Origin: Solirubrobacterales bacterium
Lineage (GTDB): Bacteria > Actinomycetota > Thermoleophilia > Solirubrobacterales > JACPNS01
NCBI GenBank assembly: GCA_016185345.1
Contig: JACPNS010000021.1
Coordinates: 1-64,000, forward strand
DNA length: 64,000 nucleotides
Direction of reading: 5' to 3'
Shown: positions 36,374-52,496 of the stretch, piece after piece
Position numbering within the stretch: position 1 is the first letter of the stretch
Layout of the letters: the number at the start of each line of letters is the position of its first letter
Made by a program: the position numbers and the translations under genes
The notes under the pieces: model-generated
The model's input: the letters and a program-made list of their open reading frames with translations, nothing else
Database searches by the model: none
Told to the model about the DNA's origin: nothing

Positions 36374-37273
36374 CTAGTAGGACTCCTCGAGCGACGCGAA
36401 GAAGTCTGCGTCGTGGCCCGGGATGATCAGGGCGCTCGGGGTCATCTGTTTATATGCGCGAATCTCGCGGACTGACCGCTTGTAGTTGTGCTCGTCGGCC
36501 AGGATCAGCGGAAGGTCGCCGGTGCTCAAGGCTCGCTGCGAGTAGACCGCGTCACCCGCAATCAGGCACTCGCGATCCTTCAGCTTGACGACCACGGACA
36601 TGTGGCCGCTCGTGTGACCAGGAGTGGATACGAGCACCACCGTCTGGTCACCGAAGAGATCGACCGATCGCCCGAACGATGCGAAGGAATTCACTTCGGC
36701 GGCTTCAAAGTCGACCAGTCGAATGTCGTGGCCGAGGTCGAACTGCTTGCGGATGTAGCCGCGTGCCAGCGCCTTGCCGGCATGCGCGCTGCGCCACTCC
36801 TTCTTGTTGACGACGACCACGGCATCCTCGACCTCGTTCAGCGATCCTGCGTGGTCGAAATGTAGGTGGGTCATGACGACCACGTCGATCCCGCCGCGCG
36901 AAATCCCGAGCGCTCGCAAGCGCGCCGGGAGCGGCTGCTCCTCGGTGGCGCGATTGACATACATGCGTGAAGCGACCGGGCCGAGCGCCGCCTTTGGATC
37001 ATGCGCGGTCGCAGCGGGCAACCCAGTGTCGATCAAGATCCGCCCGGCCTTCGGGTGCTCAAGCAAGAAGATCGGGCAGGGCGTCCAGTGGTCGAACCTC
37101 CTCCGGGCCCCACGCCACAAAGCCCGCGGATAGGCAAGCGGTTCGTCAATGCGATGAAGAAAGCCGCGCGGAACACCTGACTCGCCGGTAGAGAAGGGCC
37201 TGAGAGTGACGAACGCACCCGCAGATCCTCCGGGCAGCGGCGTACGCAACACTGGTGTGTCGATCTCCGCCAT
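36374..37273 (-). CDS. MBL-fold hydrolase, N-acyl homoserine lactonase-like
   Basis: A 299-residue metallo-beta-lactamase fold protein. The zinc motif MTHLHFDHAGSL, the GHTSGHMSV segment, AGDAVYSQRAL and IIPGHDADFF give all ligands of the AiiA-type lactonase group. Lactonase activity is only one possibility in this family. A TAGATT -10 box ends 6 bases before ATG 37273 (leaderless). It is convergent with plsC, and a terminator upstream isolates it from the SDR gene. Confidence 0.82.
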   Translation of the reverse strand: MAEIDTPVLRTPLPGGSAGAFVTLRPFSTGESGVPRGFLHRIDEPLAYPRALWRGARRRFDHWTPCPIFLLEHPKAGRILIDTGLPAATAHDPKAALGPVASRMYVNRATEEQPLPARLRALGISRGGIDVVVMTHLHFDHAGSLNEVEDAVVVVNKKEWRSAHAGKALARGYIRKQFDLGHDIRLVDFEAAEVNSFASFGRSVDLFGDQTVVLVSTPGHTSGHMSVVVKLKDRECLIAGDAVYSQRALSTGDLPLILADEHNYKRSVREIRAYKQMTPSALIIPGHDADFFASLEESY

Positions 37274-37363: not shown

Positions 37364-38209
37364 CTAGAACGCCATGCCGCCGAACATGCCGCCCGTGATG
37401 TTGAGCACCTGGCCGTGCACGTAGTTGCTGTGCGGGCTCGCCAGGAAGAAGATCGGCGCTGCCGCCTCTTCCGGAGTTGCCGGGCGACCGAGCGGAATCA
37501 GCATGTTCGCCATCTGGCGCATCTGTTCCGGGATGCCGAGCTGGATGGACTCGCCGTCCTTTTCGATCGTCTCTGCATTCTCCTTGGCGGCCGTGAGGCG
37601 CGTCTCGACGAAGCCGAAGGCGACGGCGTTGACGTTGACCTTGAACTGACCCCACTCCTTGGCGACGGTCTTGGTCAGACCGACGACAGCGAGCTTGCCC
37701 GAGCTGTAGTTGGCCTGGCCGGCGTTGCCGAACATTCCCGAGGTCGATGACACGTTGACGATCTTGCGGAAGACTTCCTTGCCCTCTGCGCGCTCGGCCT
37801 TGGCCGGCTCGCGGAAGTACGGGGCCGCTTCGCGGATCATCTGGAACGGAGCCTTGACGTGGACGTTGAGCATTGCGTCCCACTGCTCGTCGGTGATCTT
37901 GTGCACCGGGGCGTCCCAGGTGTATCCGGCATTGTTGATCAGGATGTCGATCTGACCGAACTCGTCGATCGTCTTCTTGACGATTGCGGCGGGGATCCCG
38001 TCGGCAGTGATGTCGCCGCCGATCGAGACGGTGTTTCCGGCGATGTCGCCCGCGGCCTGCTCGGCGATGTCGCCGTCGAGGTCGGTGATGACAACGTTGG
38101 CGCCAGAGCCTGCGAGCAGCTCTGCGGTGGAACGGCCGATGCCACGGGCCGAGCCGGTGACGATGGCGGTCTTGCCCTCAAGCAGACCGGGAATGACGAG
38201 GTCACTCAT
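37364..38209 (-). CDS. Short-chain dehydrogenase/reductase (3-oxoacyl reductase/FabG-like)
   Basis: A 281-residue SDR oxidoreductase. The nucleotide motif TGSARGIGRS (about 19-28), NNAG (about 92-95), the catalytic Ser in NVSSTSGMFG and the YSSGK catalytic pair are intact. GRPATPEEAAAPIFFLAS fits FabG/HSD-type enzymes. An insertion (REPAKAERAEGKEVF) precedes the catalytic Ser. It lies 68 bases after the acyl-CoA dehydrogenase and likely shares its transcript, so a 3-hydroxyacyl-CoA dehydrogenase role is plausible. Confidence 0.87.
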   Translation of the reverse strand: MSDLVIPGLLEGKTAIVTGSARGIGRSTAELLAGSGANVVITDLDGDIAEQAAGDIAGNTVSIGGDITADGIPAAIVKKTIDEFGQIDILINNAGYTWDAPVHKITDEQWDAMLNVHVKAPFQMIREAAPYFREPAKAERAEGKEVFRKIVNVSSTSGMFGNAGQANYSSGKLAVVGLTKTVAKEWGQFKVNVNAVAFGFVETRLTAAKENAETIEKDGESIQLGIPEQMRQMANMLIPLGRPATPEEAAAPIFFLASPHSNYVHGQVLNITGGMFGGMAF

Positions 38210-38277: not shown

Positions 38278-39459
38278 TTAGAAGCCGTAGCTCCGACCGA
38301 TGACGTCGAGCATCACTTCATCAGTACCGGCGCCGATGCGGTTCAAGCGCATGTCACGCCAGGCCCGCTCGATCCCGTACTCCTTCATGTAGCCCCAGCC
38401 GCCGTGAATCTGCAGGCACTCGTCGGTGATCTCGCAGCCGATCTGCGAGGAGAAGAGCTTGGCCTGTGAGATTTCGCGCACCGGGTACTCGCCGCGGTCA
38501 ACAAGCCACGCGGTGTAGTAGTTCAGCTGGCGTGCGGCCTCGAGCTTCGTGCTCATCGCGGCGATCTTGTGACGGATCGCCTGGAACTTGCCGATCGGGC
38601 GGCCGAAAGCCTGGCGCTCTTTCGCGTATTCCATTGTCTGGTCAAGCACACGCTGCGCGCCGGCAACGCAAGCACAGGCGGCAACCATGCGCTCGCTCTG
38701 CAGCTCCCACATGATGTTGTAGAAACCTTTGCCTTCCTCGCCGAGCATGTTCGCTGCGGGAACGCGCATGTCGGTGAATGAAAGCTCCGCGGTGTCAGAG
38801 GCGTGCATGCCGAGCTTCTCGAGCCGACGCGAGATCCCGTAGCCCGGAGTGTCGGTGTCAACGACAAACAGCGTGAAGCCTTCGAAGCCCTTGGTGTCGT
38901 CGGTCTTGGTGACGAGCACGATCGCATCTGCACGCAGACCGTTGGTGATGAAGACCTTCGAGCCGTTGATCACGTAATCGTCGCCGTCCCGCACGGCGCG
39001 TGTCTTGATCGCGGCCACGTCGGATCCGGCGTCGGGCTCTGTGATGCCCAGCGCGAGGATGATGTCGCCGGCGATCGCGCCCTTCAAGTACTTCTGCTTG
39101 ATCTCTTCGCTGCCGAATTTGGCGATCGGCGGCATCGCCATGTCGGTCTGGACCGCAATTCCCATGTTCAACCCGCCGCTGTTCGAGTAAGCCATCGCCT
39201 CAGCCCGCACGACCGAGGTGAAGTAGTCGCCGCCCTGTCCGCCGTACTCCTCGGGCTGGGTGAGGCCGAGGAAACCAAGGTCTCCCATGCGCTTGATCAC
39301 CGAGTCTGGGAACGTGGTTTCTTCCCACTCTTCTGCATTGGGGGCGAGCTCTGTCTTGGCAAACCGCTCGATCGTTTCGCGCAACTGCTCGTGCTCGTCG
39401 TTGAAGATGAAGTGCCGCGTGTTGGCGGCGAAGTCAGGCTTGATCGTTGCTGATTCCAT
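38278..39459 (-). CDS. Acyl-CoA dehydrogenase
   Basis: A 393-residue FAD enzyme that introduces the alpha-beta double bond into acyl-CoAs. FAD/substrate motifs: LALGITEPDAGSDVAAIKT, YVINGSKVFITNG, SERMVAACACVAGAQRVLD, ERQAFGRPIGKFQAI and the C-terminal IHGGWGYMKEYGIERAWRD. The last lines match the short/medium-chain family. A GGAGG ribosome site lies 9 bases before ATG 39459. Its promoter region carries an operator at 39497-39523 shared with the acyl-CoA operon at 45997, so both are probably under one repressor. Confidence 0.93.
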   Translation of the reverse strand: MESATIKPDFAANTRHFIFNDEHEQLRETIERFAKTELAPNAEEWEETTFPDSVIKRMGDLGFLGLTQPEEYGGQGGDYFTSVVRAEAMAYSNSGGLNMGIAVQTDMAMPPIAKFGSEEIKQKYLKGAIAGDIILALGITEPDAGSDVAAIKTRAVRDGDDYVINGSKVFITNGLRADAIVLVTKTDDTKGFEGFTLFVVDTDTPGYGISRRLEKLGMHASDTAELSFTDMRVPAANMLGEEGKGFYNIMWELQSERMVAACACVAGAQRVLDQTMEYAKERQAFGRPIGKFQAIRHKIAAMSTKLEAARQLNYYTAWLVDRGEYPVREISQAKLFSSQIGCEITDECLQIHGGWGYMKEYGIERAWRDMRLNRIGAGTDEVMLDVIGRSYGF

Positions 39460-39496
39460 CGTTGATCCTCCGCAGGGTCGGGCTCGGTGAAAGTGG

Positions 39497-39523
39497 AAAG
39501 TAAGAAGTCCTAGTTCTTACTTT
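39497..39523. promoter_or_regulatory. Operator O1 upstream of the acyl-CoA dehydrogenase
   Basis: AAAGTAAGAA, a 7-base spacer GTCCTAG, and TTCTTACTTT form a perfect 10-bp inverted repeat. On the minus strand TAAAGT (39525-39520), a likely -10 box, is embedded in one arm, so a bound protein would block the promoter. The 27-bp site matches O2 at 45947-45973 in length, spacing and most bases. Confidence 0.75.
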
Positions 39524-39561
39524 ATCCGAAGCGCACTGAAACCTGCGGCCGATTCCGCGTT

Positions 39562-39567
39562 TAGTCT
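39562..39567 (+). promoter_or_regulatory. -10 box of the first GT-C-like gene (leaderless)
   Basis: TAGTCT is followed by 9 bases and GTG 39577. No ribosome binding site is present. It lies 39 bases beyond operator O1, so the two divergent promoters may affect each other. Confidence 0.4.
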
Positions 39568-39576
39568 CGCCGGGAC

Positions 39577-41691
39577 GTGAAAGCAAACTTTGCAGAATGG
39601 CGCAGTGACGCCGGCGCCTGGCTGCGCGAGCGCGGGCTGGAAATTTGGATCATCACCGGCATCTGGGCCATCCTGACGGTGATCATCTACCTGCTCGCGA
39701 CCGGTCACGAGTCTCCGCGTAGGTACCAGGACGAATTCCTCTTCTGGGCGCTGGCAAAGAACTGGGCTGGCGGCGACGGCTTGACCTGGCGTGGCACAGG
39801 TCTGCAGATGCGCAGTGCGCTCTATCCGATTCTTCTCGCGCCCGCTTTCTGGTTCGCCAACTCCGTACCTGGTCAGTACACCGGGGTGCATCTGATCAGC
39901 TCAATGATGATCGTCGCCACGATTTTCCCGGCGTATCTGATGGGTCGCCTGTACATGGACCGCTGGCGCGCGCTGGTTGTGGCGCTGCTGGTCGTTTCCG
40001 TTCCGGCGATGAACTACGCCGGGGTCATCGGAACCGAGAACCTCGGCTATCTGCTCTTCACAGCGGCCTGCGGCGGGATCCTGCTTTCGCTGGCTCGTCC
40101 GAGACCGAGAAATACGCTGCTCGCCTTCGCGCTGGTGCTCGCCGCGATGCTGTCTCGAACGCAGTTCATCGTTCTGTTGCCGATCTTCACTGGCACGTTG
40201 CTCATGGCCGCCGTAATGGGCCCCCCGGGCAATCGCGTGGACTACCTGAAAGAGCGGCGCTCGGTCTGGACGACGCTGGTAGCGCTGGCTGCGCTCGGCG
40301 GGCTGTTCATATTGGTGCAGGGAAAGGGCGCCTTCGGTCTCTACGGCGGAGTGTTCGAAGGCATCCCTCTCGAGTTCTCCGCGTTGTGGTTCTGGGTGAA
40401 GGCATTCACCGCGGATGTCTACCTGCTCAGCGCGATAGTCCCCGTGATCGCGACGCTTGCGATGTTTGGCCGCGCCGAAAACCGACGCGATCCCTTGATC
40501 GGCGCGCTGCTCGCTCTGGCGGTGATCGCCTCGATCGTCTTCATCGCGCAGATCTCCTGGTTCTCGGCCACCAATCCGTACCAGTGGCGCGCGCGGCACA
40601 TTTTTTACGAGCGCTACATGTTCTACCTCGGCCCGATCTTTTTCCTCGGATTCCTGGCCTCTTGGAAACGGGTGTCCTGGACTTCGGCGCTCGTCTCAGT
40701 TGCGGTCGCGACGGCGATCATCAGCGGCTTCCAGACCGATGCCGTGCTCGTGCCGTTCTCATACGACTCTTTCGGTCTGACCACGATCGCGAGCTGGATG
40801 GCCAATAACCCGGCCTCCGCGCCAAAGATCGGGATGTTGTTGGCTCGGCTGACGTTCCTGCTGGGCGTGGTCTACGTGCTCTCAACGATCGACCACAAGC
40901 TGGTGCGAAAAATCCTCTATTGCGTGTTGGTCGCCGTAACATTCGTCTGGTTGATTCAGGCTCAGGCCAAGACTTGGCAGGACGCCCGCAAGTATTCAGC
41001 GCAGGCATTCGAGCTGGTCCCCAAGCCTGCAAACTTCATCGACCAGAACACCGATGAGGAGGTCGGCATGATCATCACATCCACCGATGACCCGCTGTCC
41101 TACTTCACGACAGAGTTCTGGAACAACCGCGTCGTGCGGGCGTTTGCGACCGATGCCAAGCCGATCGTTTCCCCGATCATGTATTCGCCCAAATGCAAGT
41201 TCGACTGGACGAGGACCGGCGAGATCCTTGGCACGGGTTGTGACCTGGTGCCAAACGCCTGGTACCTGCGCAGCGACACCGTCGCGATGCACCTGAAGGA
41301 CGAAACAAAGCGCGTGAATCCGTCGCCCGCCTGGCCGACGATGACGCTGATGGTTGGCGGGGCCCCGCCGAGAATGCTCTCGTTGATAGATGGTCGCAAC
41401 GTGCGTTCGGGCATAGTCTCGGGCGCGCTGAACACGCGGACCTTCCTCGACAAGCCGGGCAAGCTCCGCTTCAAGATTCGCGGCTCCGAGTCCACGGCCG
41501 TCCTGCGGACGCCAAGCGGCAAGTCCGTGGTCGTCCAGCCCGGCAAGAGCGGCGAGCTGACGATGGACTTGTCAGCCAACGAAACGTATTCGACATTCAC
41601 GGTCAAAACGCCCGGCGGCATACAAAGTGAAGTCTTTCTGGACGACCTGAGCGTGCAGGAGCCTGACGGCAAATGGCAGTCCATTCTCTGA
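39577..41691 (+). CDS. Polytopic membrane protein, GT-C glycosyltransferase-like (copy 1)
   Basis: A 704-residue protein with about 11-12 membrane helices in residues 20-480 and a soluble beta-rich C-terminal domain (about 490-704). After TM1 the loop YQDEFLFWALAKNWAGG then DGLTWRG has the acidic pair typical of GT-C mannosyl/arabinosyltransferase-like enzymes. A later signature is HIFYERYMFYLGPIFFLGF. The acceptor and sugar are unknown, and no precise family was recognised. The start is GTG 39577 behind TAGTCT. It overlaps a 706-residue paralogue by 19 bases, so the two are co-translated. Confidence 0.7.
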   Translation: MKANFAEWRSDAGAWLRERGLEIWIITGIWAILTVIIYLLATGHESPRRYQDEFLFWALAKNWAGGDGLTWRGTGLQMRSALYPILLAPAFWFANSVPGQYTGVHLISSMMIVATIFPAYLMGRLYMDRWRALVVALLVVSVPAMNYAGVIGTENLGYLLFTAACGGILLSLARPRPRNTLLAFALVLAAMLSRTQFIVLLPIFTGTLLMAAVMGPPGNRVDYLKERRSVWTTLVALAALGGLFILVQGKGAFGLYGGVFEGIPLEFSALWFWVKAFTADVYLLSAIVPVIATLAMFGRAENRRDPLIGALLALAVIASIVFIAQISWFSATNPYQWRARHIFYERYMFYLGPIFFLGFLASWKRVSWTSALVSVAVATAIISGFQTDAVLVPFSYDSFGLTTIASWMANNPASAPKIGMLLARLTFLLGVVYVLSTIDHKLVRKILYCVLVAVTFVWLIQAQAKTWQDARKYSAQAFELVPKPANFIDQNTDEEVGMIITSTDDPLSYFTTEFWNNRVVRAFATDAKPIVSPIMYSPKCKFDWTRTGEILGTGCDLVPNAWYLRSDTVAMHLKDETKRVNPSPAWPTMTLMVGGAPPRMLSLIDGRNVRSGIVSGALNTRTFLDKPGKLRFKIRGSESTAVLRTPSGKSVVVQPGKSGELTMDLSANETYSTFTVKTPGGIQSEVFLDDLSVQEPDGKWQSIL

Positions 41692-43793
41692 ACACTTCCC
41701 GGGCTCCGGCGCGCAGCACGCGGCTGCGCGAACTGGGAATTGTGTTCGCCGTCTGGATTATCGCGAGCGCGCTCGTTGCCGTCCTCGCGTTCGGGGTCAT
41801 CACGCCCAGACGGTTCGTCGATGAATTTGTTTACTGGGCACTCGCGGGAAGCGTTTCCGCTGGCGAAGGACTGACATGGCGCGGGCAGTCGTATGGGCTG
41901 GGCCCGTGGGTCTATCCGATCCTGATCGCCCCGGCGTTCAGGATCGCGAACAGCGTGAGCTCGCAGTACGAGCTCGTCAAAGCGGTCAATGCGGCGACGA
42001 TCTGCGCCGTTGTGTTTCCGGTCTACGTCGCGGCGCGATGGTTTGTCTCGCAACCAATGGCCCTGCTCGCGGCAGTCTTCGCGATCAGCGTCCCGGCCCT
42101 GAACTATGCGGGAATTGTCGGGACCGAGAATCTCGCATATCCCGTCTCGGCTTCAGCCTTTGCGGCGATGCTCCACGCGCTTGCCAGACCGGGCCTGCGA
42201 CCGTCCGCGCTCGCGGTTGGCCTGACCGTTCTGGCGGTGGCCGTGCGGGCGCAGTTTGCCCTTCTATTGCCGATCTTCGCGGCGACCCTCTTGCTCGTCG
42301 CCCTTATGCGCGGGCCGGGCAAGCGCCGCGCATATCTCTCCGAGCAGCGCTCGCTGATCGCAACGCTCGGCGTTCTTGCGGCGCTGGTAGGCCTCTACGC
42401 GCTGGTCCGCGGGGGTCAATCCCTGGGTCTTTATCAGTCGGTGCTCAACAGCGCAGCGCTCACATTGGACGGCGTTTGGTTCTGGCTCAAGGCCTTCACG
42501 GCAGACGTCTATCTGCTCTGTGCGATCGTGCCTGCGATCGCGACGTTTTCACTCTTGGGATCGGCTGAGAATCGCCGCGATCCGCTGATCGGCGCTCTCG
42601 CGGCATTGGCGCTGGTCGCGTCAATCTCGTTCATAGCCCAGATGACGTGGTTCTCGGCGATCAGCACATTTCGTTGGCGCGAACAGCACATCTTCTACGA
42701 GCGCTACATGTTCTACCTCGGACCGATCTTCTTCATCGGCTTGGTTGCCTCTCTCCGACGCGTCACATGGAAGGCCGCCGCCGCGTCGTTGGCAGTTGCT
42801 GTCCTGGTGATCAGCGGCATGCAGTCCGATGCCATCACGGTGCCGTTCTCTCTCGACGCCTTTGGGCAGGCATACATCGGCTTCTATCTCGATGAGAACC
42901 CGGAGACGCTCTCGCATGTGGGCATGGCATTGGCGGGCATCGCGCTGCTGATCGGTTTGGCATTCGTGGCAAGCGCCGCTCCCGAGTCTCGCGTTGCCTT
43001 GCGAAAGTACGGTCAAGCGCTGGCGATAGTGCTGCCGTTGTTCTTGCTCACGATCAGCCAGGCCAAGGCATGGTCCTACCAGCAGCTTTACGCCGAGTCA
43101 CTGGACGCGCAGGAACCGGTGCCAAAAGACTGGATTTCCCGTGCCACGTCGCAGCGCGTCGCCATGTTGATCCCGCGAAGTGCCGACCCGACGACCTTTT
43201 ACCAGTCGGAGTTCTGGAACCCCAACGTCGATCGCGCCTACGCCTCGACGACCAGGCCGATTGGCTCGAGACCCGTCTACTCGCCGACCTGTCCGTTTCG
43301 CACGACGTCAACCGGCGAGATCCGCGCGGTGGATGCGCCCGGGTGCGAGAGCGTTCCGACCGCCTGGCTGGTCGAGAGCGACATTTTCTCGATGCACCTT
43401 CGCAATGAAACCGAACGGGCGCATCCGAGCACGGGCCGATCGTCGACGCTGATGATCTCGTCTGCTCCAGCGCGGGTGCTCTCCATGGTCGCGGGGCGCA
43501 ACGTTGTAGACGAAAGTGTGGAGACTGCGCTCGAGATCAGGACCTATTCACGTGAGTCCGGGCAGGTCCGCATAGTCGCATCGAGCGGCAAGGGTCGCGC
43601 TCACATGCGTGCGCCAGACGGGTCGCTGGTCACGGTGCTGCCGGAACGGAGTACGACTCTCGAATATGAAACTCGCCCCGGCACCCAGCTTGAGACCTAC
43701 TTGGTCAAAGATCGACCCGGTTCGGCCAGCAAAGTCAACGTGGACAGGATTGAGTTCCGCGAGGGGGACGGCCCTTGGCGAAGCATTGACTGA
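41673..43793 (+). CDS. Polytopic membrane protein, GT-C glycosyltransferase-like (copy 2)
   Basis: A 706-residue paralogue of the preceding gene with the same plan: TM1, the loop FVDEFVYWALAGSVSAGEG and LTWRG, about 11 more helices, HIFYERYMFYLGPIFFIGL, then a soluble C-terminal domain. Conserved stretches run end to end (MNYAG/LNYAG-IVGTENL, RRDPLIGAL, TWFSA). Identity looks moderate, so the duplication is old. ATG 41673 lies inside the upstream gene with AGGAG 11 bases before it. The stop is 3 bases from the stop of the convergent lipoprotein. Confidence 0.7.
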   Translation: MAVHSLNTSRAPARSTRLRELGIVFAVWIIASALVAVLAFGVITPRRFVDEFVYWALAGSVSAGEGLTWRGQSYGLGPWVYPILIAPAFRIANSVSSQYELVKAVNAATICAVVFPVYVAARWFVSQPMALLAAVFAISVPALNYAGIVGTENLAYPVSASAFAAMLHALARPGLRPSALAVGLTVLAVAVRAQFALLLPIFAATLLLVALMRGPGKRRAYLSEQRSLIATLGVLAALVGLYALVRGGQSLGLYQSVLNSAALTLDGVWFWLKAFTADVYLLCAIVPAIATFSLLGSAENRRDPLIGALAALALVASISFIAQMTWFSAISTFRWREQHIFYERYMFYLGPIFFIGLVASLRRVTWKAAAASLAVAVLVISGMQSDAITVPFSLDAFGQAYIGFYLDENPETLSHVGMALAGIALLIGLAFVASAAPESRVALRKYGQALAIVLPLFLLTISQAKAWSYQQLYAESLDAQEPVPKDWISRATSQRVAMLIPRSADPTTFYQSEFWNPNVDRAYASTTRPIGSRPVYSPTCPFRTTSTGEIRAVDAPGCESVPTAWLVESDIFSMHLRNETERAHPSTGRSSTLMISSAPARVLSMVAGRNVVDESVETALEIRTYSRESGQVRIVASSGKGRAHMRAPDGSLVTVLPERSTTLEYETRPGTQLETYLVKDRPGSASKVNVDRIEFREGDGPWRSID

Positions 43794-43796
43794 GTT

Positions 43797-44351
43797 CTAC
43801 TGAGTGAACTTCAGCGAACCGAGAATCTCATCGCAGCCCTCGTTCACGGCCTCACGGTTCTTCGCCGATGACTGACAGTTGACCTGGAACTCGTACTGGC
43901 CCTTGAAGAGAAACGTCAGCTTGTTCTCGAGCGTGAGGTTCTCGCCGCCCGGGTACTCGACGATGTACTGATAGCCCGGCTGACCGCCGTACTTGACGAC
44001 CTTGGCATCGCCCGCGGACCCTCCGGCCTGCCTGGTCAGCCGCGCGACGATTCGATCGACCTCGGGCTGGTAGCCGTTGACTCCTGCCGGGAGCGTCTTC
44101 TTCAGCTTGTACTGCGTGATCGTGACCTGGTCATACGGCTCTTTGAGTGCGGCCGAGACGGATCGCACCGCCGCGTCGCTGGATCCGTACGTGAAGTTCG
44201 CCCCGCGGGCGAGCGTCCAGTCTTCTGGATAGTCGAAGCTGAAGGGGTAGGTCGGCGTGGTGAAGGACTGCTCGCCGCCGCTTCCGCAGCCCGCAAACAG
44301 GGCGCCGCCCACCACTACTGCAGTGAGGGTCTTGGCGATCGTCCTCGTCAT
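43797..44351 (-). CDS. Lipoprotein of unknown function
   Basis: A 184-residue secreted lipoprotein. The signal peptide AKTLTAVVVGGALFAGC ends in a lipobox (LFAGC), so the mature protein is anchored through Cys25. The rest (YPFSFDYPEDWTLARG onward) resembles the PsbP/LpqN-like fold seen in actinobacterial lipoproteins that begin with a 'fsidyPddW' strand. I chose ATG 44351: TAGATT ends 7 bases upstream. A longer frame to 44513 would destroy the signal peptide. Confidence 0.78.
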   Translation of the reverse strand: MTRTIAKTLTAVVVGGALFAGCGSGGEQSFTTPTYPFSFDYPEDWTLARGANFTYGSSDAAVRSVSAALKEPYDQVTITQYKLKKTLPAGVNGYQPEVDRIVARLTRQAGGSAGDAKVVKYGGQPGYQYIVEYPGGENLTLENKLTFLFKGQYEFQVNCQSSAKNREAVNEGCDEILGSLKFTQ

Positions 44352-44358
44352 GGGCGCC

Positions 44359-44364
44359 AATCTA
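44359..44364 (-). promoter_or_regulatory. -10 box of the lipoprotein gene (leaderless)
   Basis: TAGATT on the minus strand, then 7 bases and ATG 44351. It overlaps the gap after the dienelactone hydrolase stop (44374), so the lipoprotein has its own promoter. Confidence 0.45.
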
Positions 44365-44373
44365 GCGAGCGGC

Positions 44374-45051
44374 TCAGCCGAGATTTTTGTCGAAGAATTC
44401 GAGGTTGCGCGAGAACGCAAGCTCGGCGTACTCCTCGTTGTAGGTGCCGAGGCGATTGGCGGTATTGCAGAACGCGTGGGCGGCGCCTTCGTACATCTCG
44501 GTGACAACGTCAACGCCGGCTTCTTTCATCTCGGCAGTCAAAGCCTCGATGTCGCTAACAGACATGAAGTCGTCCTCGGTGCCGAAGTGCATCTTCACCG
44601 GCCCCTCGATCTTGCTCCAATCAGGCTTTCCGTGCGGGAAGACGTAATAGAAGCTCGAGCTTGCGGCGACCTTCGGATTGAGCGCGGCGGCGAACAGGCA
44701 GAGCGCACCACCGATGCAGTAGCCGGTTGCGCCAACGGTCTCGGCGCCGGCCTTTGATGCGACGAAGTCAACGGCGCCGATCAGTTCCTTCTCGACCTCG
44801 GGAACGTTCATCGCCATCATCTGCTGCTGGGCCTCGTCGGGCTGATCTGTCGAGTCGCCGTGAAAGTGGTCGGGCACGAGCGCGTAGTAGCCAGCTTCGG
44901 CGTAGCGATCAGCGATGCCCTTGATTTCGTCAACCAGGCCCCACCATTCCTGGATCACGACCAGCGCTTTGCCGTTGGGCGTTTCCGGGATTGCGAGGTA
45001 GCCCTCGGCAGTGCCCCCGTTGGATGCGAACTCGACCATCTCTCCAGCCAT
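44374..45051 (-). CDS. Dienelactone hydrolase family protein
   Basis: A 225-residue alpha/beta hydrolase of the dienelactone hydrolase family, whose members hydrolyse cyclic esters using a Cys-Asp-His triad. The nucleophile elbow is GYCIGG, the Asp lies in HFGTEDDFMS and the His in GAAHAFCN. VVIQEWWGLVDEIKGIADR is the family's N-terminal block. ATG 45051 has GGGGGAG about 6 bases upstream. No aromatic-degradation genes are adjacent, so the natural ester is unknown. Confidence 0.88.
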   Translation of the reverse strand: MAGEMVEFASNGGTAEGYLAIPETPNGKALVVIQEWWGLVDEIKGIADRYAEAGYYALVPDHFHGDSTDQPDEAQQQMMAMNVPEVEKELIGAVDFVASKAGAETVGATGYCIGGALCLFAAALNPKVAASSSFYYVFPHGKPDWSKIEGPVKMHFGTEDDFMSVSDIEALTAEMKEAGVDVVTEMYEGAAHAFCNTANRLGTYNEEYAELAFSRNLEFFDKNLG

Positions 45052-45113
45052 GTGATCTCCCCCAAAGAAGAATCTTCGATTACCGGCGCAACCTACCAAT
45101 CAAGCGCCTCCGG

Positions 45114-45119
45114 TAGAGT
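45114..45119 (+). promoter_or_regulatory. -10 box of the enoyl-CoA hydratase gene (leaderless)
   Basis: TAGAGT, 8 bases, ATG 45128. The 17 bases GGTAGAGTCGCCAGC plus flanks are nearly identical to the promoter of the gene at 61226. Confidence 0.5.
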
Positions 45120-45127
45120 CGCCAGCC

Positions 45128-45928
45128 ATGTCCGACGTGATCCTCACCGAGGTCAACGCAGCGACCCACGTCGCCACGCTGACGCTGAACAAGCCCGAAA
45201 AGTTCAATGCCTTCGATGCTGAGTTGGTGGACGAGTGGGCCGACGCGCTCGACCGCGTAGCGGCCGACAAGTCCGTACACGCAATCGTCATCACCGGCGC
45301 CGGCAAGGCCTTCTGCGCCGGCGGCGAGCTCGCGACGCTGGCAGCTGAATCGGGACCGCTCGCCAAGAAAGAGTTTTTGCGCGACCACGTTCACCGTGTC
45401 CAACGCTCACTCCAACGCGTGCCGCAACCGGTGATCGCGATGATCAATGGCGCGGCGATGGGGGCGGGCCTTGACATGGCGCTGCTGTGCGACCTGCGGA
45501 TCGCCGCCAACGAGGCGAGGATCGGCGAGGCGTACGTGAACCTCGGGCTTGTTCCGGGCGACGGCGGCGCGTGGCTGCTCACTCACCTGGTCGGACCGGC
45601 CCGAGCGCTGGAGCTTCTGTTGACCGGCAAAGTGATCAACGGCGAGCAGGCGGCCGAGTGGGGGCTGGTCAACCAGTCCGTCCCGCGTGAAAAGCTTTCC
45701 GAAGTTACTTATGCGCTCGCCGAGAAGCTTGCGGCTGGCCCGCAGTTGGCGCAGCGCCTGATCAAGCGAGCCGTCTACACAGCGGAGTCGATGCCGCGCG
45801 ACACGCATTACGACATGGTTTCTTCCTACATGGCTTTGGCCCAGTCGCACGACGACTTCAAGGGTGCAATAGAGGCAGCGCAGGCTGGCGAGAAGCCGGT
45901 CTTTGAATCTGGGGACCCACGCCCGTAG
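45128..45928 (+). CDS. Enoyl-CoA hydratase
   Basis: A 266-residue crotonase-family enzyme. Oxyanion-hole motifs are GAGKAFCAGGELA and NGAAMGAGLDMALLCDLRIA. The segment NEARIGEAYVNLGLVPGDGG has Glu in the place of the first catalytic Glu, and GDGG near the second. It likely hydrates 2-enoyl-CoAs in beta-oxidation. It has its own leaderless promoter, and operator O2 lies between it and the next hydratase, so it is probably not part of the operon that follows. Confidence 0.88.
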   Translation: MSDVILTEVNAATHVATLTLNKPEKFNAFDAELVDEWADALDRVAADKSVHAIVITGAGKAFCAGGELATLAAESGPLAKKEFLRDHVHRVQRSLQRVPQPVIAMINGAAMGAGLDMALLCDLRIAANEARIGEAYVNLGLVPGDGGAWLLTHLVGPARALELLLTGKVINGEQAAEWGLVNQSVPREKLSEVTYALAEKLAAGPQLAQRLIKRAVYTAESMPRDTHYDMVSSYMALAQSHDDFKGAIEAAQAGEKPVFESGDPRP

Positions 45929-45946
45929 TCGTTCGCCGCATCCGTT

Positions 45947-45973
45947 AGAGTGAGAAGTCGAACTTCTTACTTC
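45947..45973. promoter_or_regulatory. Operator O2 at the promoter of the acyl-CoA operon
   Basis: AGAGTGAGAA, spacer GTCGAAC, TTCTTACTTC: the same 10-7-10 layout and nearly the same bases as O1 (39497-39523). TAGAGT (45946-45951) is a likely -10 box overlapping the left arm, as in O1. A further TCTCACT on the right extends the symmetry. GTG 45997 follows after a 45-base leader. Confidence 0.75.
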
Positions 45974-45996
45974 TCACTTGAACCAACGGGGCGGGC

Positions 45997-46773
45997 GTGT
46001 ACGAAAACATTCTTTACGAGGTCGCAGACGGTGTGGCGACGATCACCCTCAACCAACCGGACAAGCGCAACGCGCTGAGTCACGGAATGCTCGATGACCT
46101 GGTTGACGCATTTGGCAAAGCCAAGGTTGACCCGGAAGTGCGGGTCGCGGTCCTGACAGGCGCGGGGGACGTGTTCAGCGCAGGCGGCGATCTCTCCAGC
46201 TTCTCGCAGGACGTCCCGCTCGCGCACAAGCACTACGGCACCACCCGCTTTCTAGATCTCTTCCGCGCGATCGCCGAGCTCGGCAAGCCGACGATCTGCA
46301 AGGCCAACGGGCACGTCGTTGCTGGCGGCCTTGGCGTGGCGCTCGCGTGCGACCTGATCGTCGCTTCTGACGCCGCGAAGTTCTCCACGCCCGAGATCAA
46401 CATCGGCCTCTTCCCGTTCATGATCATGGCGATCATCTACCGCAACGTTCCACGCAAGAAGGTCAACGAGATGTTGCTGCTGGGCGAGCGCATGACTGCC
46501 GAGGAGGCCGTGAACTTCGGTCTGATCAACAAGGCGGTCCCGCGCGAGGAACTCGACGAGGCAACCGACGCCTGGGCCAAGAAGCTCGCCGCCAAGGCGC
46601 CCGTCGTGATGCGACTCGGGCACGACTCGATGATCAACCAACAAGACCTGCCGTATTTCAGCGCCCTCGAGTATCTGCACACGCAGTTCACCGTGGCGCT
46701 CGGAACTGAAGACGCGATCGAGGGCGCAATGGCGTTCTTCGAGAAGCGCGAACCCGAATGGAAGGGCCGATAG
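45997..46773 (+). CDS. Enoyl-CoA hydratase/isomerase family protein (acyl-CoA operon)
   Basis: A 258-residue crotonase-fold enzyme, different from the neighbour at 45128. Motifs: GAGDVFSAGGDLSSF, KANGHVVAGGLGVALACDL and FSTPEINIGLFPFMIM. The latter has Glu at the first catalytic position, while the second position is unclear. GTG 45997 is behind a G-rich leader. It is the first gene of the operon under O2; the carboxyltransferase gene begins right at its stop. A methylglutaconyl-type hydratase role would suit the context but is inferred. Confidence 0.85.
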   Translation: MYENILYEVADGVATITLNQPDKRNALSHGMLDDLVDAFGKAKVDPEVRVAVLTGAGDVFSAGGDLSSFSQDVPLAHKHYGTTRFLDLFRAIAELGKPTICKANGHVVAGGLGVALACDLIVASDAAKFSTPEINIGLFPFMIMAIIYRNVPRKKVNEMLLLGERMTAEEAVNFGLINKAVPREELDEATDAWAKKLAAKAPVVMRLGHDSMINQQDLPYFSALEYLHTQFTVALGTEDAIEGAMAFFEKREPEWKGR

Positions 46774-48354
46774 ATGACTGAGAAGGACGGAGCTGCAATC
46801 AAGTCGCAGATGGAGGAACTCGTCGACGAGTTGCTCGCCAAGCGCGAGCACAACCTCACGGGCGGCGGCGAGGCGAAGATCGCCAAGCAGCACGAGCGCG
46901 GCAAGCTGACCGCTCGCGAGCGCCTTGATCTTTTGATCGACGACGGCACCTGGGTTGAACTCGGCCTTCACGCCCGACCACACTTCTCGCAGCGCGCAAT
47001 GGAAGGCGTCGACGCGCCGGCCGATGGCGTCCTGACCGGCTACGGCAAGGTCAACGGGCGACTGGTGGGCGTAGGCGCATACGACTTCACCGTCATGGCG
47101 GGCTCGATGGGCCTGACCGGCGAGGTCAAGCTTGCGCGGCTGCGGGCACTTGCCCTGAACAAGCGCATGCCAATGATCTGGCTGCTGGATTCAGCTGGCG
47201 CGCGAATCCAAGAAGCAGTCGGAAGCCTTTTTGCCGGCTCCGGCCACCTCTTCCGCGAGCAGGTGACGATGAGCGGCGTGATCCCGCAGATCGCAGCGGT
47301 GATGGGACCATGCGCCGCGGGCACCGCGTACATCCCGGCGCTCACTGACTTCTTGCCGATGGTCAAGGGCCAGGGCTCGATGGCGCTCGCTGGATCCCAC
47401 CTCGTCAAGGCAGCAACCGGCGAGGACGTCACCGACGAAGAGATCGGTGGCTACAAGGTCCATAACCGCAAGAGCGGCGTGGCCGACACGGAATGCAATG
47501 ATGACGCCGAGTGCATCCAGTCGATCAAGGACTACCTCTCATACATGCCTTCCCACAGCGGCGAGAAGCCGCCGATCAAGGCGACCGAAGACCCGGTCAA
47601 TCGCCACTCCGAAGAGCTGCTGAACATCCTGCCCGAGAGTTCACGCCAGCCCTACGACATGTACGAGATCATCAAGCACATCGTCGACGACGGTGAGTAC
47701 TTCGACATGAAGGGCAAGTGGGCGAAGTCGATCATCACGTGCTTTGCGCGGATGGACGGGCGCAGCGTCGGCATCGTCGCCAACCAGCCCAAGCACCTCG
47801 GCGGGATCCTCGACAACGACTCGGCGGACAAGGCCGCGCGCTTCATCAACCTCTGCGACGCCTACGGCGTGCCGCTGATCTACCTGCAGGACGTTCCCGG
47901 CTTCATGGTCGGCAGCAAGGTCGAAGAGGCGGGCATCATTCGCCACGGCGCAAAGTTCCTCTACGCGACCTCTCGCGCCACGGTGCCGAAGGTCACGATT
48001 CTGATCCGCAAGTGTTACGGCGCTGGCTACTACGTGATGAACGGCTCGGGCTACGAGCCCGATGCGATCTACGCATGGCCAACGGCTGAGATCAGCGTGA
48101 TGGGCGCCGAGGGCGCGGTGAACATCATCGGTCGCAGCATCATCGAAGCTGCCGAAGACCCAGAGGCCAAGCGCGAGGAACTGCTCGCGCAGGCCCAGAA
48201 GATGATCGACGTCTACCTCGCCGCAGGCAACGGAATGATCGACGACGTGATCGACCCACGCGAGACGCGCCACCACATCATCCGCGCGCTCGAAATGGCC
48301 GAGAACAAGCACGTCGATCGCCCGGCCAAGAAGCATGGAGTGATGCCCGTATGA
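46774..48354 (+). CDS. Acyl-CoA carboxylase, carboxyltransferase (beta) subunit
   Basis: A 526-residue carboxyltransferase of the propionyl/methylcrotonyl-CoA type, which moves carboxyl from biotin to an acyl-CoA. N-domain: ERLDLLIDDGTWVELG, DFTVMAGSMG, DSAGARIQEAVGSL and GPCAAGTAYIPALTDF. C-domain: ITCFARMDGRSVGIVANQP, LQDVPGFMVGSKVEEAGIIRH and YGAGYYVMNG. The ATG directly follows the previous TAG. It needs a biotin carboxylase and carrier; a free carrier is encoded at 33115-33327. The acyl-CoA specificity is not determined by these motifs. Confidence 0.92.
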   Translation: MTEKDGAAIKSQMEELVDELLAKREHNLTGGGEAKIAKQHERGKLTARERLDLLIDDGTWVELGLHARPHFSQRAMEGVDAPADGVLTGYGKVNGRLVGVGAYDFTVMAGSMGLTGEVKLARLRALALNKRMPMIWLLDSAGARIQEAVGSLFAGSGHLFREQVTMSGVIPQIAAVMGPCAAGTAYIPALTDFLPMVKGQGSMALAGSHLVKAATGEDVTDEEIGGYKVHNRKSGVADTECNDDAECIQSIKDYLSYMPSHSGEKPPIKATEDPVNRHSEELLNILPESSRQPYDMYEIIKHIVDDGEYFDMKGKWAKSIITCFARMDGRSVGIVANQPKHLGGILDNDSADKAARFINLCDAYGVPLIYLQDVPGFMVGSKVEEAGIIRHGAKFLYATSRATVPKVTILIRKCYGAGYYVMNGSGYEPDAIYAWPTAEISVMGAEGAVNIIGRSIIEAAEDPEAKREELLAQAQKMIDVYLAAGNGMIDDVIDPRETRHHIIRALEMAENKHVDRPAKKHGVMPV

Positions 48355-48370
48355 CCGACCCCACCATTTT

Positions 48371-48616
48371 GCTGCACACCTCAGGTGTGCAACTCGATTC
48401 TGCGGAGAGAAATGGCTTAGGTATCGGGTCGATCGCTGCACACCTCTGGTGTGCAGCGGGTTCCCGGGCGCCGCAGCTCGCCTCATCCTCCCGCCGCCTG
48501 CAGGTCACATCCGTTCGCCAACGATCTGCTGCTCACCAGAGGTGCGCAGCAACTAACCCCTTGAACAAGCCCCTTCTCAATGCCAAATCCCATTGCACAC
48601 CAGAGGTGCGCAGCAA
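48371..48616. repeat. Array of four palindromic repeats arranged as inverted pairs
   Basis: The 273-base gap between the carboxyltransferase and BKACE genes has no gene but four hairpin repeats of the form GCTGCACACC-NNN-GGTGTGCAGC. R1 is at 48371-48392 (centre TCA), R2 at 48435-48457 (TCT, perfect 10-bp stem), R3 at 48527-48552 (AGA) and R4 at 48593-48616 (AGA). Centres are 64, 93 and 64 bases apart. R3/R4 are in reverse orientation to R1/R2, and the spacer of R3-R4 read backwards resembles that of R1-R2 (GAGAA-GGCTT-GGGT). R4 ends 1 base before the AAAGGA region of the next gene. Confidence 0.8.
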
Positions 48617-48627
48617 AGGAATCACCA

Positions 48628-49521: not shown

Positions 49522-50734
49522 TCTTCCGTTGAAGGGCGTCAAGGTCCTCGACCTCTCGCGCCTTCTCCCCGGACCGTTCTGCTCATTGCTGCTCGCCGAC
49601 CTCGGCGCAGAAGTGCTGAAGGTCGAAGACACCGGCATGGGCGACTACCTGCGCTGGACGACGCCGTACGCGGGCGGGGAAGAGGCCAAGGCAAGCGGCA
49701 CCCACAGCGTCCAGTTCGACGCGCTCAACCGCAACAAGAAGTCGATCCAGCTCGACCTGAAGTCGATCGAAGGCAAAGAGATCCTGCTGAAGCTCGTCGC
49801 GGCACACGACGTCGTACTTGAGTCTTTCCGTCCCGGCGTGCTCGCCAAACTGAACGTCGGATACGACCAGATGAAGACCGTGAATCCCGGTGTCGTCTAT
49901 TGCGCGATCACAGGCTATGGACAGGACGGGCCTTTCGCACTTCGCGCAGGTCACGACATGAACTATCTGGGCTTGAACGGACTGCTCGGACTGACCGGCG
50001 CCAAAGGCGGCGCCCCGGTTCAGGCCGCAGGCCAGATCGCAGACATCGGCGGCGGGGCCCAGATGGCAGCGATCGCAATTCTCGGCGCGCTGGTGAAGAA
50101 GCAGACGACGGGCGAGGGAGCCGAGATCGACATCTCGATGACCGACGGCGCCCTGAGCTGGCTCGCAATGCCGGCCGCGGCGGCGCTTGCGGGCGACGTC
50201 CGCGAGCGAGGCGAAGTTGACCTCGCCGGCAAATGGGCTTGCTACATGCCGTATGAGGCCGCCGACGGCTGGATCAGCTGCGGCGCCCTGGAGCCGAAGT
50301 TCTGGCAGGCATTTGCGCGCGGCGTTGGTCGCGAGGACCTGATCGAGAACCAGTTCGAGCTCGCTGGCAGCGAGGGTTGGGCCGTCGTCGCCGAAGTCTT
50401 CAAGACCAAGACGCGCGCCGAGTGGGCCGCATTCAACGACGAACACGACTGCTGCATCGAACCGGTGCTTGATATCGACGAAGCCCTCGAGTCCGATCTG
50501 GTGAAGTCACGCGGGATGGTGATCGAAATCGACCAGCCGGGCGTCGGCCCAGTCGCCCAGCTCGCACCACCGTTCGTGATCGACGGAGTCCGCCCGGACC
50601 GACGCGAACCCGCCCCCGGATTTGGCGAGCACACCGACAGTGTTTTGGAATCGCTCGGCTACAGCGACGACCAGATCGCCGAGTTGCGATCGAGCGGTGC
50701 CGTCGCAGGAGTGGAAAGCGTGCCCGCGCAGTGA
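49514..50734 (+). CDS. Class III CoA-transferase (CaiB/BaiF) or alpha-methylacyl-CoA racemase-like
   Basis: A 406-residue class III CoA-transferase fold protein. The N-terminus LPLKGVKVLDLSRLLPG leads into PFCSLLLADLGAEVLKVED, a classic start; then NRNKKSIQLDLKS, VVLESFRPGVLAKL and YCAITGYGQDGPF. GHDMNYLGLNGLLGLTG is typical of the racemase branch. It either exchanges CoA between acids or epimerises 2-methylacyl-CoA. ATG 49514 overlaps BKACE by 8 bases and the MerR gene begins at its stop (GTGA), so all three are translationally coupled. Confidence 0.88.
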   Translation: MSDLPLKGVKVLDLSRLLPGPFCSLLLADLGAEVLKVEDTGMGDYLRWTTPYAGGEEAKASGTHSVQFDALNRNKKSIQLDLKSIEGKEILLKLVAAHDVVLESFRPGVLAKLNVGYDQMKTVNPGVVYCAITGYGQDGPFALRAGHDMNYLGLNGLLGLTGAKGGAPVQAAGQIADIGGGAQMAAIAILGALVKKQTTGEGAEIDISMTDGALSWLAMPAAAALAGDVRERGEVDLAGKWACYMPYEAADGWISCGALEPKFWQAFARGVGREDLIENQFELAGSEGWAVVAEVFKTKTRAEWAAFNDEHDCCIEPVLDIDEALESDLVKSRGMVIEIDQPGVGPVAQLAPPFVIDGVRPDRREPAPGFGEHTDSVLESLGYSDDQIAELRSSGAVAGVESVPAQ

Positions 50735-51456
50735 CGCCCACAACTACGCCAAGCACCGATGGCCTCCTGCGCATGGCCGCGCTAGCCGAGCAGAGCGGAG
50801 TATCTGCCGCGACAATCAAGCACTACCTGCGCGAAGGCCTGCTGCCCGCGCCGGTCAAGACCAGCCGCAACATGGCCTGGTATTCGCCCGAGTACGTGGA
50901 CCGCATCAAGCTGATCAAGCGGCTCCAGGAAGAGCGCTACCTGCCGCTCGACGTGATCAAGCGCATCCTCGAGAATGAGCCCGACCAGGTTGAGGCGCGC
51001 CTTGAGCTTGGCGACGCGTTGCTGCAGCGCTCCGAAGCAGCGCTCGCTAGCGGCAAGGGACTCACGCGAAAGCAAGCTGTCTCCAAGCTCGATCTTCCCG
51101 ACGATGTTCTGGACGCGTTCGAGCGCATCGGCGCAATTGAGCCGCACGAAACGAAGGGCGGCGTCCGCTACACCCAGCCCGACGCTGAGTTCCTGACCGC
51201 AATCGCCGAGTTCCGCAAGAGCGGCTACGGCGAAGCGCTCGGCTTCACCGTCTACGACGCCCTGATCTACATGCGCCACCTCGAAGCCCTCGCGCGCGAC
51301 GAAGTCGACGTGATCTCAGAGAAGCTCCCGGGCAAGCTGTCGGCCGACGAGGCCGCAGACCTGATCGAGCGTGGGCACGGCCCGATGCGTGATCTGCTCA
51401 GCGCGATGCACGTGAAGCTGCTTGTTGCTGAGCTTCGTCGTCGCCAGGACAGCTGA
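50731..51456 (+). CDS. MerR-family transcriptional regulator
   Basis: A 241-residue regulator. The N-terminal winged helix (about 12-80) reads LRMAALAEQSGVSAATIKHY then LREGLLPAPVKTSRN, followed by YVDRIKLIKRLQEERYLPL, the MerR dimerisation-helix approach. The remaining 150 residues are helical and contain no metal-binding Cys. MerR regulators such as LiuR control branched-chain acyl-CoA degradation. Being the last gene of this operon, it is a candidate to bind O1 and O2, though that is inference. GTG 50731 overlaps the previous stop. Confidence 0.85.
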   Translation: MTPTTTPSTDGLLRMAALAEQSGVSAATIKHYLREGLLPAPVKTSRNMAWYSPEYVDRIKLIKRLQEERYLPLDVIKRILENEPDQVEARLELGDALLQRSEAALASGKGLTRKQAVSKLDLPDDVLDAFERIGAIEPHETKGGVRYTQPDAEFLTAIAEFRKSGYGEALGFTVYDALIYMRHLEALARDEVDVISEKLPGKLSADEAADLIERGHGPMRDLLSAMHVKLLVAELRRRQDS

Positions 51457-51668: not shown

Positions 51669-52496
51669 ATGCCCGAACCGCTGATCGCCGCCGCGATCCA
51701 GATGAACTCCCAGGCCGACAAGGCCCACAACAACGAACGCGCTCATGCGCTTGTTCGCGAGGCCGCGGCCGACGGCGCGCAGCTGATCGTCCTACCCGAG
51801 AAGTTCAACGTCATGGGCGGCACCGAGGACTACTTCGAGAACGCGGAACCGCTCGACGGCCCAACAATCGTCAGCCTCGCGCGCATCGCCGAGGAGCTGA
51901 AGATCGACATCGTCGCCGGTTCGATCGTTGAGCGCATCCCGGGCCAGGAGAAGCTCGCCAACACCTCAGTGCACATCGGCCCAGACGGCGCGATCAAAGC
52001 GACCTACCGCAAGATCCACATGTTCGACGTTGTGCTCAACGGTCAGGAATACAAAGAGTCCGACCACGAGGATCCCGGGAATGATGTCGTTACGACCGAG
52101 CTCGCGGGCGGCCAGCCGCTCGGCCTGACCGTTTGCTACGACGTCCGCTTCCCCGAGCTTTACAGAATCCTCGCCACCCGCGGCGCCCTGATCGAGACCG
52201 TCCCGGCGGCCTTCACCTACACGACAGGCGAGGCCCACTGGGAGCTCCTGCTGCGCGCCCGCGCCGTAGAAAACCAGCTCTTCGTCATCGCGCCGAACCA
52301 GTTCGGCTGCCACGACGGCGACCGCCGCTCCTACGGCAACTCCATGATCGTTGACCCCTGGGGAACCGTGCTCGCACGCGCCGGCGACGTGGGCGACGCA
52401 GTAATTGCAGCGGAGCTCGACTTTGTCGCTCAATCAGCCATCCGCGATAAGCTGCCGAGCCTTGCCAACCGCGTGCCCGGCGCCTACTCATGGTGA
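51669..52496 (+). CDS. Carbon-nitrogen hydrolase (nitrilase superfamily, omega-amidase/NIT2-like)
   Basis: A 275-residue amidase with the full Glu-Lys-Cys triad: E44 in IVLPEKFN, K115 in TYRKIHMFD and C156 in GLTVCYDVRFPEL. The YRKIHMFDV and RFPELYR context matches NIT1/NIT2 enzymes, which hydrolyse omega-amides of 2-oxo acids or deaminated glutathione. It is placed just before the DUF4235/Holin-X genes but has its own promoter. Confidence 0.9.
   Translation: MPEPLIAAAIQMNSQADKAHNNERAHALVREAAADGAQLIVLPEKFNVMGGTEDYFENAEPLDGPTIVSLARIAEELKIDIVAGSIVERIPGQEKLANTSVHIGPDGAIKATYRKIHMFDVVLNGQEYKESDHEDPGNDVVTTELAGGQPLGLTVCYDVRFPELYRILATRGALIETVPAAFTYTTGEAHWELLLRARAVENQLFVIAPNQFGCHDGDRRSYGNSMIVDPWGTVLARAGDVGDAVIAAELDFVAQSAIRDKLPSLANRVPGAYSW

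What the first reader, a model, noticed from the sequence alone, without database searches (positions are those of the whole stretch)
39497..45973. Matching 27-bp operators link two acyl-CoA units 6.4 kb apart
Seen: O1 (39497-39523) is AAAGTAAGAA-N7-TTCTTACTTT and O2 (45947-45973) is AGAGTGAGAA-N7-TTCTTACTTC; both spacers begin GTC. Each overlaps a -10 box in the same way (TAAAGT or TAGAGT in the arm), on the strand of the acyl-CoA gene. Inference: one repressor controls the acyl-CoA dehydrogenase/SDR unit and the hydratase-carboxyltransferase-BKACE-CoA-transferase-MerR operon, making them one catabolic pathway.
Basis: partly seen in the sequence, partly recalled or inferred. Interest (0 to 1): 0.68.

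Follow-up and report, generated by a model that had tools for sequence, protein, structure and literature searches.

The report
MerR operators of an acyl-CoA regulon
Two matching DNA switches in an actinobacterium mark two halves of one acyl-CoA breakdown locus, and comparison with related genomes shows that the switch goes with a MerR-type regulator gene at the end of the same operon.

Summary
They are instances of an order-wide operator (Solirubrobacterales), AGT-N4-AGT-N3-ACT-N4-ACT. In 34 of 37 related loci with room to judge, the acyl-CoA dehydrogenase gene lies divergently beside hydratase-carboxyltransferase-BKACE-CoA-transferase-MerR; the 3 exceptions belong to the window's own genus, where other genes lie between. 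Gaps up to 228 bp carry one shared operator (21 of 22 loci); wider gaps usually carry one per gene (13 of 17). The window is a wide-gap case. The operator follows the MerR gene: 76 of 98 MerR+ genomes against 1 of 43 MerR- genomes; among genomes with the carboxyltransferase, 66 of 76 against 0 of 19, although the MerR- genomes keep the enzyme genes. So the regulator is most likely the MerR protein at 50731-51456, not a TetR. Repression and an acyl-CoA ligand are inferred. The pathway is probably branched-chain acyl-CoA (leucine/isovalerate type): in four relatives the operator precedes a methylcrotonyl-CoA carboxylase gene. A new regulon of a known kind, with strong comparative support and no experimental proof.

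The parts
39497..39523 (-). Operator O1; its centre is 51 bp upstream of the acyl-CoA dehydrogenase start
   Evidence: counterpart in G001 and in G002 and G003
39492..39494 (-). Extra AGT/ACT element of O1, 7 bp outside the palindrome on the gene-proximal side
   Evidence: sequence
45947..45973 (+). Operator O2; its centre is 37 bp upstream of the hydratase start
   Evidence: counterpart in G001 and in G002-G004
45976..45978 (+). Extra ACT element of O2, 7 bp outside the palindrome on the gene-proximal side
   Evidence: the same element is the column +27/+28 signal over 37 loci
38278..39459 (-). Acyl-CoA dehydrogenase, first gene behind O1
   Evidence: Pfam
37364..38209 (-). SDR oxidoreductase, probably cotranscribed with the dehydrogenase
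   Evidence: Pfam; also downstream of the dehydrogenase in several relatives
36374..37273 (-). Metallo-beta-lactamase-fold protein, possible third gene of the O1 unit
   Evidence: Pfam; order kept in G001
45997..46773 (+). Enoyl-CoA hydratase/isomerase family, first gene behind O2
   Evidence: Pfam
46774..48354 (+). Acyl-CoA carboxylase carboxyltransferase, propionyl-CoA type by sequence; the only PF01039 gene found in this genome
48628..49521 (+). BKACE (beta-keto acid cleavage enzyme family); likely start 48628
   Evidence: Pfam PF05853
49508..50734 (+). Class III CoA-transferase
   Evidence: Pfam
50731..51456 (+). MerR-family regulator proposed to bind O1 and O2
   Evidence: Pfam PF13411; phyletic association
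39577..45928 (.). Genes between the two units in this genus (two large ORFs, two further ORFs on the - strand, a second hydratase gene)
   Evidence: absent between the units in 34 of 37 judged relatives

Best explanation
O1 and O2 are binding sites of the MerR-family protein encoded at the end of the O2 operon (50731-51456). The two units are a divergently transcribed acyl-CoA catabolic locus that lies apart in this genus, so each promoter carries its own operator. Shown by comparison: the operator family, the one-or-two-operators rule, and the dependence of the operator on the MerR gene. Inferred: the MerR dimer sits on the -10 to start region and represses, feedback through its own operon sets its level, and a pathway acyl-CoA releases it. 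The pathway is most likely a branched-chain (isovaleryl-CoA/leucine type) acyl-CoA route.
For: Consensus AGTRGGAAGTNNNACTTCCYACT within 5 mismatches upstream of 40 of 44 hydratase genes and 37 of 40 dehydrogenase genes; 20 shuffles per region give 0.05 and 0 per set at that level. The looser pattern at up to 1 mismatch hits 81 of 151 genomes, its reversed control 2 of 151. MerR and operator: 76 of 98 against 1 of 43, Fisher 1.9e-18; given the carboxyltransferase 66 of 76 against 0 of 19, 4.4e-13; stratified within 8 genera, p = 2e-5. The 20 loci fetched from carboxyltransferase-positive genomes (19 scored MerR-, plus G147, whose MerR was not searched) keep enzyme genes of this locus, and their best site matches have 5 to 8 mismatches. 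Where the locus is split further, sites stand in front of the separated pieces, e.g. before BKACE in G017, G014 and G112 and before the carboxyltransferase in G112. Gap rule. Four genomes carry the operator before a methylcrotonyl-CoA carboxylase beta gene, with an alpha subunit bearing BT_MCC_alpha next to it in G010.
Against: No binding or expression data. The consensus was written after looking at about 18 loci, many from genomes that also appear among the 80 loci, so 40 of 44 and 37 of 40 are not blind; the MerR+/MerR- contrast does not depend on that, but MerR- genomes could have another operator. In compact loci one shared site is counted in both sets. One MerR- genome (G074) has a 1-mismatch site. 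22 of 98 MerR+ genomes have no site within 1 mismatch; of the 10 that also have the carboxyltransferase, four seem to lie at a contig end (G091, G105, G123, G135; inferred from match positions), G052, G059 and G126 have sites with 2 or 3 mismatches, G019 and G025 have weaker ones, and G125 was not inspected. The window's carboxyltransferase resembles propionyl-CoA carboxylase, not methylcrotonyl-CoA carboxylase. No promoter passes the scan at O1 or O2; a TTGAC at the right distance upstream of the operator is seen in only 4 of 39 hydratase regions.
Confidence: 0.8

Rival explanations
1. A TetR-family (or other) regulator encoded elsewhere binds the sites, and the MerR gene merely travels with the operon.
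For: A long palindrome in front of acyl-CoA genes is typical of TetR regulators (general knowledge); the genome has 28 TetR_N matches.
Against: Among genomes with the carboxyltransferase the operator is found in 0 of 19 without MerR and 66 of 76 with it, also within genera. Such a TetR would have to be lost and gained together with MerR. TetR distributions were not tested.
Confidence: 0.1
2. The MerR protein is an activator of the classical kind (operator inside a stretched -35/-10 spacer) rather than a repressor.
For: Most characterised MerR proteins activate by distorting a 19-20 bp spacer (review PMC9909328, passages).
Against: In four relatives TTGACG lies 26-27 bp before the operator's first base, which puts a 17-18 bp spaced -10 at the operator edge and the operator over the -10 and start region. 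Promoters are not mapped, so the polarity is open.
Confidence: 0.2
3. The pathway is not leucine/isovalerate but another short-chain route (for example propionyl-CoA linked).
For: The carboxyltransferase is closest to propionyl-CoA carboxylase beta chains (503.6 bits for the best); no methylcrotonyl-CoA carboxylase chain is among the 25 matches at E up to 1e-100. It is the only PF01039 gene found in the genome. BKACE and the class III CoA-transferase have no place in the textbook leucine route (general knowledge).
Against: Operator in front of methylcrotonyl-CoA carboxylase beta in G010, G037, G049 and G007. That carboxylase is present in 10 of 22 MerR+ genomes lacking the window-type carboxyltransferase and in 2 of 76 having it (related genomes, so not independent). 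HMG-CoA-lyase-family gene in 38 of 39 carboxyltransferase+ genomes against 12 of 22 others.
Confidence: 0.45
4. The two sites are chance or generic palindromes without regulatory meaning.
For: Short palindromes are common.
Confidence: 0.01

Closest known systems
LiuR regulon (MerR family, branched-chain amino acid use, Proteobacteria)
   Same: MerR-family regulator of a branched-chain amino acid (liu/ivd type) catabolic gene set; described as a repressor (PMC3223726, passages). That such sets hold an acyl-CoA dehydrogenase, a carboxyltransferase and a hydratase is recalled.
   Different: Other phylum; here BKACE and a class III CoA-transferase belong to the operon, the window's carboxyltransferase is not of the methylcrotonyl type, and orthology and the LiuR motif could not be compared (Kazakov 2009 is not held)
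FtsR / Rv1828 (MerR family, actinobacteria)
   Same: Best NCBIfam hit of the window MerR is FtsR; a review lists fatty acids for Rv1828 (PMC9909328, passages). That Rv1828 is the mycobacterial FtsR is recalled.
   Different: 47.6 bits against a cut-off of 150, so not a member
BldC (MerR-like, binds direct repeats)
   Same: Operators with stepped short repeats; here AGT/ACT elements at 7-bp steps
   Different: BldC binds 9-bp direct repeats head to tail and lacks coiled-coil and effector domains (PMC5859096, abstract start and passages); here the core is a dyad and the protein has over 150 residues beyond the MerR domain

Membership tests
MerR family | N-terminal MerR winged helix-turn-helix | tested here: met
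   PF13411 4.3e-26, 91.3 bits against cut-off 21.6; model hits MerR/GlnR structures
MerR family, classical activator | Operator inside a 19-20 bp -35/-10 spacer | tested here: inconclusive
   No promoter called at O1/O2; in 4 of 39 relatives TTGACG precedes the operator by 26-27 bp
FtsR | NCBIfam equivalog score of 150 bits or more | tested here: not met
   47.6 bits
LiuR | Controls a methylcrotonyl-type carboxyltransferase | tested here: not met
   Not in the window; found only in G010, G037, G049 and G007
LiuR | HMG-CoA lyase in the regulated cluster (feature recalled) | tested here: not met
   The lyase-family gene lies on another contig, C9:22116-22997; O1 and O2 are the only own-genome sites
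LiuR | Orthology to proteobacterial LiuR and its motif | not tested
   Motif paper not held; no LiuR sequence was compared

The most novel reading that the evidence does not exclude
A MerR regulator with a second helix-turn-helix-like domain reads a five-element operator (AGT-N4-AGT-N3-ACT-N4-ACT plus one more step) and senses a branched acyl-CoA; the propionyl-type carboxyltransferase of the operon, the only one found in this genome, stands in for methylcrotonyl-CoA carboxylase, and the operator is copied when the divergent promoter region widens.
Probability: 0.25. Interest if true: 0.65.

Novelty: new member of a known kind. Interest (0 to 1): 0.5.

Why it matters
It gives a regulator, its operator and its regulon for a little-studied actinobacterial order, from sequence alone and with a built-in natural control (same genes, no MerR, no operator). 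The gap series from 67 bp to 7 kb shows how a shared divergent operator and a pair of separate ones relate, which is a clean case for studying how regulation survives rearrangement. The exchange of the window-type carboxyltransferase for a methylcrotonyl-CoA carboxylase under the same operator gives a testable clue to what this BKACE operon does.

Tried and rejected
Rejected: chance palindromes. Considered and lowered: TetR control; classical MerR activation. The lead that the HMG-CoA-lyase gene sits beside a biotin carboxylase in the own genome was wrong: the large neighbouring gene is an AMP-binding ligase of the acetyl-CoA synthetase type. The acyl-CoA dehydrogenase could not be given a substrate. 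Paper searches listed nothing on this regulon; only listings with abstract starts, and passages of PMC3223726, PMC5343134, PMC5045206, PMC5859096, PMC9909328 and PMC9938897, were seen. The structure model is of medium quality (pLDDT 77, pTM 0.53), so the second helix-turn-helix is only suggested.

Rows dropped: one hydratase region of 5 nt (L137); L133 left out of the hydratase set because its best match there is the dehydrogenase-side site; rows at least 80% alike dropped. MerR was searched in 141 of the 151 genomes (G141-G150 not searched). The 80 loci are the best 80 of 202. Family labels such as GT, DLH and NIT in my scripts are working names; of these only NIT was scanned (Pfam CN_hydrolase). 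NF004283 is printed as PRK05692.1; that it means hydroxymethylglutaryl-CoA lyase is recalled.

Full report
Observation. O1 and O2 stand at the stated coordinates. O1 is a perfect 10+10 palindrome; O2 pairs at 7 of 10. A scan of the own genome (G000, 2.43 Mb in 22 contigs, 96.7% complete) with AGTNAGAA-N7-TTCTNACT at up to 3 mismatches gives 25 places, of which only O1 and O2 match fully; the reversed control gives 45. With the order-wide pattern, O1 and O2 are again the only own-genome sites within 1 mismatch.

Conservation. In genus mate G001 the same pair of sites precedes the same two genes. Titles of the 80 loci found with the MerR alignment place the group in the Solirubrobacterales and Thermoleophilia where they name an order or class. 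In those 80 loci, MerR is preceded on the same strand by the CoA-transferase in 71, BKACE in 75, the carboxyltransferase in 63 and the hydratase in 47; many contigs end before the further genes. Of 37 loci with at least 1500 nt before the hydratase, 34 have the dehydrogenase divergently upstream; the other three are from the window's genus.

Operator. The consensus AGTRGGAAGTNNNACTTCCYACT lies within 5 mismatches upstream of 40 of 44 hydratase genes and 37 of 40 dehydrogenase genes (39 of 40 within 6); dinucleotide shuffles reach 5 or fewer 0.05 and 0 times per set. In gaps up to 228 bp the two genes share one site (21 of 22; L165 has none). In gaps of 238 bp to 7 kb there are two sites, one at each gene, in 13 of 17, and one in the other four; no other site lies between. 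The window, with a 6.5-kb gap, is near the wide end of this series. Column statistics show the core AGT-N4-AGT-N3-ACT-N4-ACT and a further element one 7-bp step out on the hydratase side, present at both window sites.

Regulator. In 141 genomes the MerR protein was sought and scored at E up to 1e-15 and the operator at up to 1 mismatch: 76 of 98 MerR+ against 1 of 43 MerR- (Fisher 1.9e-18). Restricted to genomes with the window-type carboxyltransferase: 66 of 76 against 0 of 19 (4.4e-13). Stratified within the eight genera that hold both states, p = 2e-5. Direct inspection of 20 loci from carboxyltransferase-positive genomes (19 scored MerR-, and G147, whose MerR was not searched) shows the enzyme genes in place and best site matches of 5 to 8 mismatches, which is background except perhaps the 5-mismatch place in G011. 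When the locus is broken up further, the pieces carry sites of their own (G014, G017, G112). This is what is expected if MerR is the binder and its loss lets the operator decay. It is correlation, not binding.

Mode of action. In four relatives a TTGACG lies 26-27 bp before the operator's first base, so that a -10 hexamer would end in the operator's first AGT. The operator would then cover the -10 and start region, as a repressor's site does; the window has no recognisable -35. The MerR model has a MerR domain, a long helix, a second winged-helix-like part and C-terminal helices (the reading of the second part is mine), with MerR and GlnR structures as nearest folds. An acyl-CoA ligand is inferred from the genes controlled and from Rv1828, listed with fatty acids in a review (PMC9909328, passages).

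Pathway. The window's carboxyltransferase is of propionyl-CoA type and is the only PF01039 gene found in its genome. In G010, G037 and G049, which lack that type at E up to 1e-150 (G037 and G049 likewise), an operator with 0 mismatches precedes a methylcrotonyl-CoA carboxylase beta gene, and in G007 one with 3 mismatches. The G010 protein matches methylcrotonyl-CoA carboxylase best (560 bits) and its neighbour has the BT_MCC_alpha domain. The two carboxyltransferase types tend to exclude each other among MerR+ genomes (10 of 22 against 2 of 76; genomes are related, so this is weaker than its p-value). An HMG-CoA-lyase-family gene occurs in 38 of 39 carboxyltransferase+ genomes, the window's included, against 12 of 22 others. 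Together this favours a leucine/isovalerate type route, at about even odds; BKACE and the CoA-transferase remain unexplained in it.

Verdict. Ordinary in kind (a local MerR regulon), well supported by comparison, and not found in the paper searches made.

Noticed in passing
48368-48617: Four copies of a palindromic repeat (GCACACC-NNN-GGTGTGC type) lie in two pairs, 64 bp apart within each pair, between the carboxyltransferase and BKACE genes; the same pattern occurs elsewhere in the genome only on C5 (one) and C13 (a pair, again 64 bp apart). It looks like a REP/REPIN-type element; the contig of G001 breaks near here.
   Followed up: partly
39497-39577: O1 also lies just upstream of the divergent ORF at 39577-41691 (704 aa, no NCBIfam hit), so that gene may have come under the same operator in this genus.
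   Followed up: no
51669-52496: A carbon-nitrogen hydrolase gene lies behind MerR here and in many of the related loci fetched, and behind the CoA-transferase in several MerR-negative ones.
   Followed up: no
L183 (G011): A MerR-negative genome keeps a 5-mismatch remnant-like site (AGTGAATAGTCGTACGTCGCACT), possibly a decaying operator.
   Followed up: no
G000, whole genome: Only one Carboxyl_trans (PF01039) gene was found, so the window's carboxyltransferase may also have to serve other acyl-CoA carboxylations.
   Followed up: no
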